From Yersinia frederiksenii ATCC 33641 (GTDB lineage: Bacteria; Pseudomonadota; Gammaproteobacteria; Enterobacterales; Enterobacteriaceae): a stretch of 64,000 bases of DNA. This document shows positions 49,913 through 55,929 of the stretch, in pieces. The stretch lies in NCBI RefSeq assembly GCF_000754805.1, contig NZ_KN150731.1, positions 4,431,642-4,495,641 on the forward strand, in the 5' to 3' direction. The translations under genes and the position numbers were made by a program. Under the pieces are notes generated by a model, which saw only the letters and a list, made by a program, of their open reading frames with translations, did not search any database and was not told where the DNA came from. Position 1 is the first letter of the stretch; the number at the start of each line of letters is the position of its first letter.

Positions 49913-51223
49913 TCAGTAGATACTGGCGATATAATTCTGGATGGTTGCCAGCAAATTTCCCGTACCACAGCATGCATCATTATATCCTTCAGTGTGTCTA
50001 CGATTAATAACTCGGTCATGGGGGCAACCACCATGGCAAATAGAAAACCACGGGCAATGATGCATTTTTTTAGTAGCCTCATTTTCCTCGTTGATGGCTT
50101 GTTGATTATGTGTTGAGTGCGCTAGCAGGTCTGCTAAGTCAGTAGATAATAATGAACCATAAATACTATTTTTATCTCCAACATACTTATCGCAAGGAGA
50201 GACGTCCCCATTGGGTTCGAGAGTAATAATTTCTTGTGAGCAATTACCAGACCAATAGCAGGCAGCTGGTTTTTGGCTAGGGTTTCTTAGCACCTTGATA
50301 AAGTCGTCAAAAACAGCAATATGTATTTTTTCTTGGTAATCTCTTACCCAAATAGTAAACAGTACTGAGAGGAAATGAATAAACTCGGCATAAGTGATAA
50401 AGTTATAGCCAACATATTCACCTTTAACCAACCGATTATCTGGAACGATATTGAGGAACTCAATACAATTTAGTTCGATTGAAATAAAATAGTCTAGCAT
50501 TTCTCTTATATCAGTTTGATATATATCTCGATCAACAACAATGAGTGCGCCATATAAAATGTTATGCTGGCGAAGTTTTTTTATCCCTTGTGCCACGCGT
50601 TCAGATGTTCCTTTCCCTCGATAGTCGATTCTCCGTTTATCATTTATCGTTGGGACTCCATCAAGACTAATTCCGACATTCATACCAATACCTTGGATGA
50701 ATTTCAACCACTCGTTGGATATATTAACTAAGTTTGACTGCATTGTGTTTGTTATATATTGCTCTGGCCGTTTAAATTGCTGCTGCAACCAAATAAGCTT
50801 TTTAAAAAAAGAAGGTTTTAACAGTGTGACTTCTCCTCCATGCCATACAAATTCAAATCTGTTTACATTCGGAATGGCAAGGAGTTGGCGTACAGTATGA
50901 ACCAATGTATGAAATGAAACCGTCTGATTGGGACCTTCAGCCCATGAGTGACAATAAGTACAGCGCAGGTTACATAAACGCGTTGCCTTCAGCACAATAA
51001 CTAACTTTTCTGCCTTAATGGCTTTTGCTGAAATACTTTTACTTATTTCTTCATTATATATTTCTAGCTCATCAGTATCTAATAATTGATTGGCTGGGAT
51101 CTTTCCTATAAGCAAAGCTGATAAGGCTTTATATTCGCAGCTTTCAAGTTTTTTTAAGTTTTGTGAATTTATATTATTAATATCAATGCAATCAATGTTT
51201 TTAATTGGTATCTTATTCTCCAT
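49913..51223 (-). CDS. Radical SAM/SPASM peptide maturase, XYE type
   Basis: A 436-residue radical S-adenosylmethionine enzyme. The cluster motif CxxxCxxC is at C84, C88 and C91 (CNLRCTYC), and the C-terminal SPASM domain has cysteines at about C322, C328, C344, C390, C396, C400, C418 and C419, enough for two auxiliary iron-sulfur clusters. WHGGE near residue 128 is the usual second motif. It matches the XyeB-like group (Xenorhabdus-Yersinia-Erwinia), enzymes that make strained rings between an aromatic side chain and a residue two positions on in a small precursor. It lies last in the minus-strand cluster, 17 bases after the ATPase gene. Confidence 0.85.
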   Translation of the reverse strand: MENKIPIKNIDCIDINNINSQNLKKLESCEYKALSALLIGKIPANQLLDTDELEIYNEEISKSISAKAIKAEKLVIVLKATRLCNLRCTYCHSWAEGPNQTVSFHTLVHTVRQLLAIPNVNRFEFVWHGGEVTLLKPSFFKKLIWLQQQFKRPEQYITNTMQSNLVNISNEWLKFIQGIGMNVGISLDGVPTINDKRRIDYRGKGTSERVAQGIKKLRQHNILYGALIVVDRDIYQTDIREMLDYFISIELNCIEFLNIVPDNRLVKGEYVGYNFITYAEFIHFLSVLFTIWVRDYQEKIHIAVFDDFIKVLRNPSQKPAACYWSGNCSQEIITLEPNGDVSPCDKYVGDKNSIYGSLLSTDLADLLAHSTHNQQAINEENEATKKMHHCPWFSICHGGCPHDRVINRRHTEGYNDACCGTGNLLATIQNYIASIY

Positions 51224-51240
51224 AATGTATTCCTATCTTG

Positions 51241-51900
51241 TCATGTGAAATTGCCGTCTTTCATATTAACTATTTTTTTCCCATATGCAGATGCTTCATC
51301 TGAATGTGTCACCATAATAATAGTAGTGCCTTTTTTATTAATATTTTTCAATTGTTGAAGGACCATATGAGCGTTTTTACTATCCAAATTCCCAGTTGGT
51401 TCATCAGCTAAAAGTAATGCGGGTTTGGATACCATTGCTCTAGCTATTGCTACGCGTTGTTGCTGGCCACCAGATAATTGTATTGGTTTATGGTCTCTCC
51501 GATTCTCAATGTCGAAAATAGTTAATACTTGATCTACTCGTTCAATGCGCTCTTTCTTATTGATTCCACGATATTTAAGAGGTAATGCAATATTATCAAA
51601 GACGGATAGATGGGCGATAAGATTAAATGATTGAAAAATATATCCTATGAGTGTTCTTCTCAGCAGGATTTTTTGTGAGTAGTTCAACTTGGAAACATCT
51701 TTTCCAGCCAAAGTAAGAGAACCACTATCTAGATTATCAAACATACCAATAATATTGAGTAGTGTCGATTTACCTGACCCTGATGGCCCCATGATGGAAA
51801 CAAAGTCACCTTTCTCTACAGAAAAATCAAGATGATTAAGAACCTTGGTTTTTATTGTCTTAGTAATGTAACATTTCTGAGCGTTTTGTATATTTATCAT
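51241..51900 (-). CDS. ABC transporter ATPase, MacB/LolD type
   Basis: A stand-alone ATPase of the LolD/MacB class. The ATG at 51900 (MINIQNAQKCYITKTIKTKV), one base after the stop of the membrane-fusion gene, matches the family start; the frame extends to 51954 inside that gene. Walker A GPSGSGKST near residue 39, LSGGQQQRVAIARAM near 140, and LLLADEPTGNLDSKN are intact. It should power export of the modified peptide by the permease encoded upstream. No peptidase domain is attached. Confidence 0.85.
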   Translation of the reverse strand: MINIQNAQKCYITKTIKTKVLNHLDFSVEKGDFVSIMGPSGSGKSTLLNIIGMFDNLDSGSLTLAGKDVSKLNYSQKILLRRTLIGYIFQSFNLIAHLSVFDNIALPLKYRGINKKERIERVDQVLTIFDIENRRDHKPIQLSGGQQQRVAIARAMVSKPALLLADEPTGNLDSKNAHMVLQQLKNINKKGTTIIMVTHSDEASAYGKKIVNMKDGNFT

Positions 51901-51901
51901 G

Positions 51902-53164
51902 TTATTTAAACTCAATGATAGCATATTCTTTATTATTGGTTTTAGGAGGTACAATAATTTGTTGTCCTGCTATTAATCCTGCTGTAATTTCTGTTTTTAT
52001 AGCACTTCTTCGTCTGATTTCAACGTAAGATTTAATAGCTTGATCCTTTTCTGGTTGATAGATATAGATAAATTCGTTCCCACCTTTATCTGAAATGATA
52101 CTTTCTGCAGGTACCAATAAAACATTGTTGTCCTCATCGTTTAGTGAGATTTTTATTTCAATTGACTGTCCCCTTTTTAGCGGGACAGGACTCTGCTGAT
52201 ATGGTATTAGTTTTGCTTTAAATTTACCATTTTCAACAATGGTTGATACTGACTCAATGAGTAATGGAATATCTTGGCCATTTATTTGTGAAACTATCTG
52301 GCTCTGTGGGATTATTTTATCTAGATAGTACTCACTGAAATAAACATTGAAATAATAAGACTGTAAGTTATCTATTACAGCAATTTTCTCGCCAGGTTTT
52401 ATTTGCTGACCTAATTCAATATCTAAAACAGATAAGGTTCCATCAATAGGTGCCGTTATCACTAACTGGTCCATACCATTTTCAATCATTTTCATCATCC
52501 TCTCAAGCAGGGAAATAGAATTATCAATACTTCTTAATTGTGAGGGGAATGACGCTCTATTCTTAGAATCATGTACCCGTAGTATATCAATTTTTGCTTG
52601 CCAGTTTTTTAATATGCCAACCTGGTATTCTAATTCTGATTTTGCAATCATTGATTTTTTGTCAAGTTCTCGGTGTCTATTTAAATCTTTAGAGATTATA
52701 GCAATTTGGTGTTCAGCTTCTTGTAAGCTGATCTTTGTATCTCGATTATCTTGTTCCAGTTGTATTTTCATATTACGCAGGTTATTTATTTTTTCAACAA
52801 TGGTGGCTATTCTGGATGTTGCTTCCAGCATAAAGTCATAGTTTGATAAATTAGCAATAACATCACCTTTTGCAACAGTATCAAAGGCCTGTTTTGTAAT
52901 ATTAATAACTTTCCCCCCTCGCTCACTTGATACAATTATACTTTCCTTTGGTACAGTAATCGCTCGGGTAATGAGCAGGTCTTGATAAACTTCTGGTTTT
53001 ATTGTGTGAAAAATAACATCGTCTCGAGATATGAGTAAGGTTTGTTGCTTTGTAGATAAGTAATAAACAGAATAAACACCTGAAATAAATAACAGCAACA
53101 CGCAAAAAATGATTAATTTAGCATTTTTATTTATAGATGCTTTTTTTTCTATTTTTATATCCAT
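51902..53164 (-). CDS. HlyD/MacA-type periplasmic membrane-fusion protein
   Basis: A 420-residue adaptor with one N-terminal membrane anchor (about residues 17-38), a lipoyl-like region (PKESIIVSSERGGKVINITKQ near 75), a long coiled-coil hairpin (about 110-225), a second lipoyl half (LVITAPIDGTLSVLDIELGQ near 235) and a beta-barrel. It would link the inner-membrane permease to an outer-membrane channel such as TolC. The gene starts five bases after the permease stop. The sequence is AT-rich compared with the flanking core genes. Confidence 0.85.
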   Translation of the reverse strand: MDIKIEKKASINKNAKLIIFCVLLLFISGVYSVYYLSTKQQTLLISRDDVIFHTIKPEVYQDLLITRAITVPKESIIVSSERGGKVINITKQAFDTVAKGDVIANLSNYDFMLEATSRIATIVEKINNLRNMKIQLEQDNRDTKISLQEAEHQIAIISKDLNRHRELDKKSMIAKSELEYQVGILKNWQAKIDILRVHDSKNRASFPSQLRSIDNSISLLERMMKMIENGMDQLVITAPIDGTLSVLDIELGQQIKPGEKIAVIDNLQSYYFNVYFSEYYLDKIIPQSQIVSQINGQDIPLLIESVSTIVENGKFKAKLIPYQQSPVPLKRGQSIEIKISLNDEDNNVLLVPAESIISDKGGNEFIYIYQPEKDQAIKSYVEIRRRSAIKTEITAGLIAGQQIIVPPKTNNKEYAIIEFK

Positions 53165-55530: not shown

Positions 55531-55655
55531 AGGGAAATATCTCACTGGTTTTAATAAAATCTAGTGATGTTATTACTATTAAGATGATGTTGTGCTACTG
55601 CATCAGTATTGAAGTAACTTACATTCTTTATTCAAATTATATTGACTGTCTATTG

Positions 55656-55687
55656 CGGTTAAGATGCTAACGAAAGCATCTTAACCG
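55656..55687 (-). promoter_or_regulatory. Hairpin between the peptide gene and the transporter genes
   Basis: CGGTTAAGATGCT pairs perfectly with AGCATCTTAACCG over 13 bp, with a 6-base loop. No T-run follows on the minus strand. Placed between a precursor gene and its processing genes it may let part of the transcription stop or stabilise the short message, raising precursor over enzymes. That is a common RiPP layout; the effect here is inferred. Confidence 0.6.
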
Positions 55688-55716
55688 GCAGGTATTAAAT
55701 GTTCCCATTGTATAAT

Positions 55717-55929
55717 CTATTGTTGTGTAAAGCTTTTTGACCAGTTCCATGCGGTTATTTTATTATCTGAATCGCTATTTTTTAGACTTTCAATTTCATG
55801 GTCATTTATAGATAGTGAACTATTTTTAAACGATTCCTCTAATGATTCCAATTTAGTTTTTAGTGTTATTAAATGCGTATTACCTGTTTTTTTATCTGGT
55901 TGATGTGAAGTATGCATATAATTCTCCAT
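55717..55929 (-). CDS. XYE-type RiPP precursor peptide
   Basis: A 70-residue peptide. The first 55 residues are polar and include a predicted helix (LITLKTKLESLEESFKN), typical of a leader; the last ten are the likely core, W61-N-W-S-K-S-F67-T-Q-Q, rich in aromatic residues. AAGGA stands about nine bases before the ATG. Three-residue windows with an aromatic first residue are W61-N62-W63, W63-S64-K65 and F67-T68-Q69. There is no double-glycine leader end. I recognise the type from its tail, its size and the maturase next door; I cannot prove modification. Confidence 0.8.
   Translation of the reverse strand: MENYMHTSHQPDKKTGNTHLITLKTKLESLEESFKNSSLSINDHEIESLKNSDSDNKITAWNWSKSFTQQ

What the first reader, a model, noticed from the sequence alone, without database searches (positions are those of the whole stretch)
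49913..55929. AT-rich island encoding a complete XYE-type radical SAM peptide system with its own exporter
Five minus-strand genes form one set: precursor peptide, FtsX/MacB-type permease, HlyD/MacA-type adaptor, MacB/LolD-type ATPase, and a radical SAM/SPASM enzyme. Seen: spacing of 17 bases or less, except ahead of the transporter; AT-rich codons unlike the core genes on both sides. Known: XYE maturases (Xenorhabdus, Yersinia, Erwinia) make three-residue cyclophane peptides. Inferred: this is a peptide natural-product island, inserted between kgtP and frmA-fghA.
Basis: partly seen in the sequence, partly recalled or inferred. Interest (0 to 1): 0.9.

Follow-up and report, generated by a model that had tools for sequence, protein, structure and literature searches.

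The report
Yersinia gene cluster for antibiotic darobactin

Summary
In detail: five minus-strand genes (49913-55929), tightly spaced and AT-rich (34.0% GC against 45.9% in the rest of the window; 0 of 459 other stretches of that length as low). The interpretation needs correcting. This is the darobactin cluster darABCDE: all five proteins exceed the NCBIfam darobactin cut-offs and the precursor ends in WNWSKSF, the darobactin A core, while the XYE maturase model scores 80.8 bits against a cut-off of 450. The expected product is a bicyclic heptapeptide (+12 Da), not three-residue cyclophanes at -2 Da per ring. Darobactin clusters in Yersinia are published, so the find is known. Some or all of the cassette lies next to fghA in 20 of 25 Yersinia genomes (one per species), decayed in several and apparently exchanged between some. 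Three side results I did not see in print: a covarying hairpin between darA and darB (17 of 18 loci); a BamA target with no carrier-specific residue; and loci with darBCD but no darA or darE found, in one Yersinia and three genomes of another genus. The last two fit export as the immunity mechanism.

The parts
55717..55929 (-). darA, darobactin A precursor (70 aa from the first ATG; 66 aa from the ATG at 55917)
   Evidence: NF038004 81.6 bits, cut-off 45; core and start codons compared in 18 loci
55729..55749 (-). core peptide WNWSKSF (darobactin A), followed by a TQQ tail
   Evidence: sequence; core definition in PMC8694152 section 5
55654..55690 (-). conserved RNA hairpin between darA and darB, no U-run
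   Evidence: 75-nt stretch folds at -23 kcal/mol, z -4.9; 10-pair helix, 6 pairs with compensated changes over 18 loci
53170..55530 (-). darB, FtsX/MacB-like permease of the darobactin exporter
   Evidence: NF038008 1231.1 bits, cut-off 700 (scanned from 55533)
51902..53164 (-). darC, periplasmic adaptor
   Evidence: NF038010 705.3 bits, cut-off 450
51241..51900 (-). darD, ATP-binding subunit
   Evidence: NF038007 430.9 bits, cut-off 375 (scanned from 51903)
49913..51223 (-). darE, radical SAM/SPASM darobactin synthase; Cys motif C84-x3-C88-x2-C91 (CNLRCTYC)
   Evidence: NF038005 836.1 bits, cut-off 650; the three Cys invariant in 8 aligned homologues; same motif as DarEpk
55930..56176 (-). 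fghA-darA intergenic region holding the presumed dar promoter; terminator-like site of fghA at 56121-56138
   Evidence: terminator-like site; a stretch of it also stands ahead of darB in the transporter-only locus L064; promoter inferred, not mapped

Best explanation
This is the darABCDE cluster for darobactin A. The ribosome makes DarA. DarE, a radical SAM/SPASM enzyme, installs a Trp1-O-Trp3 ether and a Trp3-Lys5 C-C bond in WNWSKSF. Host proteases with no gene in the cluster remove leader and tail. DarBCD, a MacAB-like tripartite pump, exports the heptapeptide, which binds the beta-1 strand of BamA in competing Gram-negative bacteria and blocks outer-membrane protein assembly. The cell protects itself mainly by export, because its BamA shows no carrier-specific change. 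Gene identity and anatomy are shown here. Chemistry and target are transferred from published homologues. Expression, production and the means of self-protection in this strain are inferred.
For: All five proteins exceed the curated darobactin equivalog cut-offs. The core is identical to darobactin A, and Yersinia clusters with this core are tabulated in print. Order A-B-C-D-E is found on one contig in 13 of 25 Yersinia genomes, the window's included, and split over two contigs in one more. DarE homologues from Photorhabdus khanii and Yersinia intermedia make the +12 Da bicyclic peptide (PMC9055067 passages). A plasmid with exporter genes raised the MIC of E. coli Nissle for darobactin (>16 against 1.6 ug/ml; PMC11559228 passage). 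Each of 25 Yersinia genomes has exactly one BamA match over the cut-off. Published resistance positions 394, 429, 434, 435, 443, 445, 705 and 807 carry the same residues in carriers and non-carriers in all 25 (for 24, for G006).
Against: No expression or product data for this strain. PMC8694152 screened five predicted producers, Y. frederiksenii ATCC 33641 among the strains named, and detected neither matching activity nor the compounds, so the cluster may be silent in culture. Yersinia BamA differs from E. coli at position 394 (Tyr for Phe) and 426 (Leu for Phe, in the darobactin-contacting strand), in carriers and non-carriers alike, so genus-wide intrinsic tolerance is not excluded.
Confidence: 0.95

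Rival explanations
1. An XYE-type cluster: the enzyme makes three-residue cyclophanes.
For: Distant similarity to the XyeB model: E 7.6e-23, 80.8 bits.
Against: The XyeB cut-off is 450 bits; the enzyme scores 836 on the DarE model. The precursor hits only the darobactin model. DarE enzymes form an ether plus a C-C crosslink.
Confidence: 0.02
2. A darobactin cluster that is a recent horizontal insertion in this genome.
For: GC 0.340 against 0.459; the darBCD tree conflicts with the tree of flanking genes across the genus (delta lnL 1632, 13 tips).
Against: dar genes are next to fghA in all 20 Yersinia genomes where both are on one contig. For window versus Y. alsatica, synonymous differences in darB-E (0.36-0.44) are close to those of five flanking genes (0.24-0.41), and the grouping of window, alsatica, vastinensis and rohdei is the same in both trees (the vastinensis node has only 57-83% support).
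Confidence: 0.1
3. A silent or relict darobactin locus with no present function.
For: Related loci are decaying: darE in two frames in Y. aldovae (L027), darB split with only the 3' part of darE (L029), darB split with only the 5' part of darE (L030), a darB remnant in L067. No product was seen in the strains tested in PMC8694152.
Against: All five reading frames here are open and full length against their models, with pN/pS well under 1 against relatives.
Confidence: 0.15

Closest known systems
Darobactin A cluster of Photorhabdus khanii
   Same: Five genes, same order (PMC9055067 passages for the genes), same heptapeptide core; DarE 56% identical (L098, P. khanii NC19)
   Different: Leader diverged, tail TQQ rather than QEI, DarC 33% identical, no fghA or kgtP match in the locus
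Published Yersinia darobactin clusters (PMC8694152 Table 1; Y. intermedia DarE in PMC9055067)
   Same: Same genus; core A is tabulated for several Yersinia species
   Different: This exact precursor sequence is not in Table 1 (closest row by eye: Y. frederiksenii)
XYE (XyeB) cyclophane system
   Same: Radical SAM/SPASM enzyme acting on a short peptide
   Different: Profile score far below cut-off; different crosslinks; different precursor family
MacAB-type tripartite ABC exporters (recalled comparison)
   Same: Permease + adaptor + ATPase logic; MacA and MacB models hit below their cut-offs
   Different: Permease and ATPase are separate genes and match darobactin-specific models

Membership tests
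Darobactin (daropeptide) cluster | Precursor with W-x-W-x-(K/R)-x-F core, matching NF038004 | tested here: met
   81.6 bits, cut-off 45; WNWSKSF
Darobactin (daropeptide) cluster | DarE radical SAM/SPASM enzyme | tested here: met
   NF038005 836.1 bits, cut-off 650
Darobactin (daropeptide) cluster | DarBCD exporter beside the precursor | tested here: met
   NF038008, NF038010 and NF038007 all over cut-off
Darobactin (daropeptide) cluster | Bicyclic product with ether and C-C crosslinks, +12 Da on the precursor | not testable with these tools
   Shown for homologues in PMC9055067
Darobactin (daropeptide) cluster | Product inhibits BamA | not testable with these tools
   Known for darobactin A (PMC8694152 passages)
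XYE maturase system | Enzyme reaches the XyeB equivalog cut-off | tested here: not met
   TIGR04496 80.8 bits, cut-off 450
XYE maturase system | Precursor matches an XYE precursor family | tested here: not met
   Only NF038004 hit in NCBIfam and no Pfam hit, at E <= 0.01; whether those libraries hold an XYE precursor model was not checked

The most novel reading that the evidence does not exclude
DarBCD is a free-standing immunity pump as well as an exporter. Selection keeps it in lineages that no longer make darobactin, because neighbours do. In one Yersinia (G016) and three genomes of another genus (g237), full-length darBCD remains, in G016 at the site where other Yersinia carry the full cluster, while darA and darE were not found anywhere in the genome. 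The darA-darB hairpin, kept by compensatory change in most clusters, sets the precursor-to-pump ratio and is gone where darA is gone.
Probability: 0.5. Interest if true: 0.5.

Novelty: already known. Interest (0 to 1): 0.35.

Why it matters
Darobactin is one of few new antibiotic scaffolds against Gram-negative bacteria (PMC8694152 abstract passages). The cluster is known, but the genus-wide view makes an open question testable: how producers survive their own BamA inhibitor. BamA shows no carrier-specific change, and pump-only relatives exist, which points to export and predicts where standing darobactin tolerance occurs in nature.

Tried and rejected
XYE family: rejected on scores. Target-site self-resistance: 0 alignment columns at which the complete carriers (14 labelled, 13 with sequence) and the four dar-less species share no residue (G006 failed to load there and its listed positions were checked). 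Second BamA copy: one match over the cut-off in each of 25 genomes; every genome also has weaker partial hits under it, mostly to a frame of about 580-610 aa that I take for TamA by recall. Known RNA family: no Rfam hit at gathering scores in window 47000-58500. Intrinsic terminator reading of the darA-darB hairpin: no U-run, and not among the sites of the terminator scan, so attenuator or stabiliser stays open; Pseudoalteromonas loci L085, L086 and L094 have, by eye, a stem followed by TTTTT after darA, but the minimum-energy fold uses it only in L094. Promoter scan: 23 sites against 32.7 expected in shuffles, so no promoter can be named. Order-wide census: 2 of 394 genomes over cut-off for DarB and 2 of 394 for DarE, the window's genome and Y. 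alsatica; uninformative because the order sample is broad. Solved structures: nearest chains are anaerobic sulfatase-maturating enzymes (E 5e-34); none of the 4 sequences at E <= 1e-5 is named DarE.
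Full report
What is there. Window 49913-55929 (minus strand) holds five genes in the order darA, darB, darC, darD, darE. Against NCBIfam each exceeds the cut-off of its darobactin equivalog: DarA 81.6 bits (cut-off 45), DarB 1231.1 (700), DarC 705.3 (450), DarD 430.9 (375), DarE 836.1 (650). DarA ends ...KITA-WNWSKSF-TQQ; WNWSKSF is the darobactin A core (PMC8694152, section 5 read whole; other parts as passages). DarE carries CNLRCTYC, the motif reported for the Photorhabdus khanii enzyme. 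The XyeB model gives 80.8 bits against a cut-off of 450, so the XYE label fails.

Composition. The stretch has 34.0% GC against 45.9% for the rest of the window, and 0 of 459 other stretches of equal length are as low. GC3 is 0.21-0.32 against 0.39-0.52 in eight neighbours.

Host. The nearest relative with a name is Yersinia alsatica IP38850 (DarE 92%; FrmA 99.7%; identified with genome G017 by equal contig length). The window's own species is named by no call. It may be a Yersinia of the frederiksenii group (inference).

Same site across the genus. Of 25 Yersinia genomes (one per species) I place 14 as having all five genes, one of these (G002) split over two contigs. Three have broken genes (G008, G010, G015), one has only darBCD (G016), one has a darB remnant (G020), and four have no dar genes (G001, G009, G012, G024). 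Two are undecided because contigs end inside the locus: G018 (only a 3' part of darE, no darA hit) and G022 (darA and the start of darB; no darE match in the whole assembly). In 20 of the 21 with any dar trace, dar and fghA are neighbours on one contig (in G013 about 1.8 kb apart); the 21st (G018) is broken by contig ends. In G024 the fghA and kgtP matches are 194 bp apart; in G001, G009 and G012 fghA is followed by the DUF924 gene or its start.

Exchange and decay. On 13 tips, darBCD data reject the topology of the flanking genes fghA, frmA, lysR and moeA (delta lnL 1632; p-KH 0, p-AU 0.0004; 1000 resamplings, which the program itself calls too few for AU). The flanking tree has several weak nodes (40-65% support), and dar synonymous sites are near saturation, so only strong contrasts count. 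G021 against Y. aldovae: synonymous differences 0.10-0.26 in darB-D but 0.33-0.68 in five flanking genes, which suggests cassette exchange. G016 against G005: 0.30-0.55 in flanks but 0.69-0.73 in darB-D. In the window's clade the two trees agree. Cores in 18 Yersinia darA genes, window included: WNWSKSF 12, WNWSRSF 5, WSWSKSF 1.

Self-protection. Each of 25 genomes has one BamA match over the cut-off. At the published resistance positions 394, 429, 434, 435, 443, 445, 705 and 807 (PMC10476194 passages) carriers and non-carriers have the same residues in all 25 (for 24 genomes; for G006). No column separates the complete carriers from the four dar-less species. Against E. coli, Yersinia differs at 394 (Tyr) and 426 (Leu) whatever the dar status. 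PMC11559228 (passage) reports that a plasmid with exporter genes raised tolerance of E. coli Nissle. PMC9055067 (passages) reports that darBCD is not needed to make darobactin and that E. coli lysate can mature the precursor, which fits the absence of a protease gene here.

Pump-only loci. G016 (L064) has full-length open frames for DarB (791 aa), DarC (420 aa) and DarD (225 aa from a TTG), but neither darA nor darE between fghA and kgtP; loose tblastn finds no trace of either in the 16-kb locus (best E 3.1 for DarA and 0.51 for DarE). Its whole genome has no NF038004 hit and no NF038005 hit at E <= 1e-60; its best DarE-like match is a 25%-identical protein at 3.8e-17. A stretch shared with the window's darA upstream region stands just ahead of darB there (local score 55), and the darA-darB hairpin does not appear in its fold. 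A census of 392 genomes of the family found 20 with DarB at E <= 1e-60, 17 over cut-off. Of the 16 non-Yersinia among these, 12 have DarE at E <= 1e-60 (11 over cut-off) and the same 12 have a DarA hit at E <= 0.01 (only 3 over cut-off, so that model is weak outside the genera it was built on). The four without are G505, with a broken darB piece, and G538, G690 and G747, all of genus g237, with full-length darBCD. In the 18-kb stretches of the three, G627's DarA and DarE find nothing better than E 0.44. Pairwise dN/dS in darBCD between two pump-only genomes (L152, L153) is 0.08-0.18 at 0.46-0.54 synonymous differences. That is purifying selection without production if their common ancestor already lacked darA and darE, which I did not test. 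G016 pairs give 0.03-0.17 where computable, close to the range of control pairs, 0.06-0.18. Pairwise values average over producing and non-producing history, so this is suggestive. The alternative that these pumps carry another substrate is not excluded.

Hairpin. After the darA stop, 17 of 18 loci fold a stem of this kind; the exception is L024, Y. similis (judged by eye from the folds). On the 18-row alignment (17 distinct) the 10-pair helix has 95.9% of cells paired, 32 cells with both sides changed and a covariation score of 0.557; 0 of 500 shuffles reach any of these three, and sliding the partner by 1-3 columns drops pairing to 14.9-49.4%. Two measures do not support it: 6 pairs with a change on both sides is reached by 314 of 500 shuffles, and the number of further pair types (10) by 500 of 500. 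Two arm types, one around AAGATGC/GCATCTT and one around TAGGCCA/TGGCCTA, explain most of the covariation, so the number of independent events is small. There is no U-run, no terminator call and no Rfam match. My reading: a processing, stabilising or attenuating element that makes more precursor than pump and enzyme. The one literature search (any two of four terms) listed ten general papers, none with the word darobactin, so absence from print is weakly supported.

Literature limits. Imai et al. 2019 and Gross et al. 2021 are known to me by recall or citation only; the second is not held. Transporter-only darobactin loci were not mentioned in the passages I read; searches were made, and only listings and passages were seen.

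Verdict. A correct observation of a known system under the wrong family name. Interest rests on the side results.

Noticed in passing
L064 7515-11850 (G016); L152, L153, L154 (G747, G690, G538): Full-length darBCD with no darA or darE found, in one Yersinia and three genomes of another genus: candidate darobactin-immunity loci.
   Followed up: partly
window 55654-55690: Hairpin between darA and darB, present in 17 of 18 Yersinia loci with compensatory changes; function unknown.
   Followed up: partly
L078, L079, L080, L083, L084 (WNWSKGF); L081 (WNWSKAF); L091 (WNWIKKF): Darobactin-like precursors in other Enterobacterales with cores outside the A-F list of PMC8694152. WNWSKGF was found in no paper of the library; WNWSKAF occurs once, in PMC10107326, context not read. 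WNWIKKF was not searched.
   Followed up: partly
L156 about 8127-8355, minus strand (G505): A precursor-like short frame ending LAWNWSFRF stands ahead of a darB that tblastn finds only in pieces; no DarE in that genome at E <= 1e-60 and no NF038004 hit at 0.01. A decayed locus with an odd core, or chance.
   Followed up: partly
L067 4678-8238 (G020): darB matched only over residues 2-84, followed by a class 3 lipase-domain protein and a resolvase fragment: the cassette seems replaced by an insertion.
   Followed up: partly
L023 and L027 (G021, Y. aldovae): darB-D much more alike than the flanking genes, suggesting exchange of the cassette between Yersinia species at the same site.
   Followed up: partly
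L095 8001-9176 (Sulfidibacter corallicola): A DarE relative (43%) in a record not from the Enterobacterales or the other genera listed with darobactin, with no DarA-D match in the locus at the settings.
   Followed up: no
window 55531-55600: An imperfect inverted repeat (CACT...AGTG) just ahead of the darB start recurs by eye in many Yersinia loci and could cover the ribosome-binding site; its fold is only weakly stable (z -1.5).
   Followed up: partly
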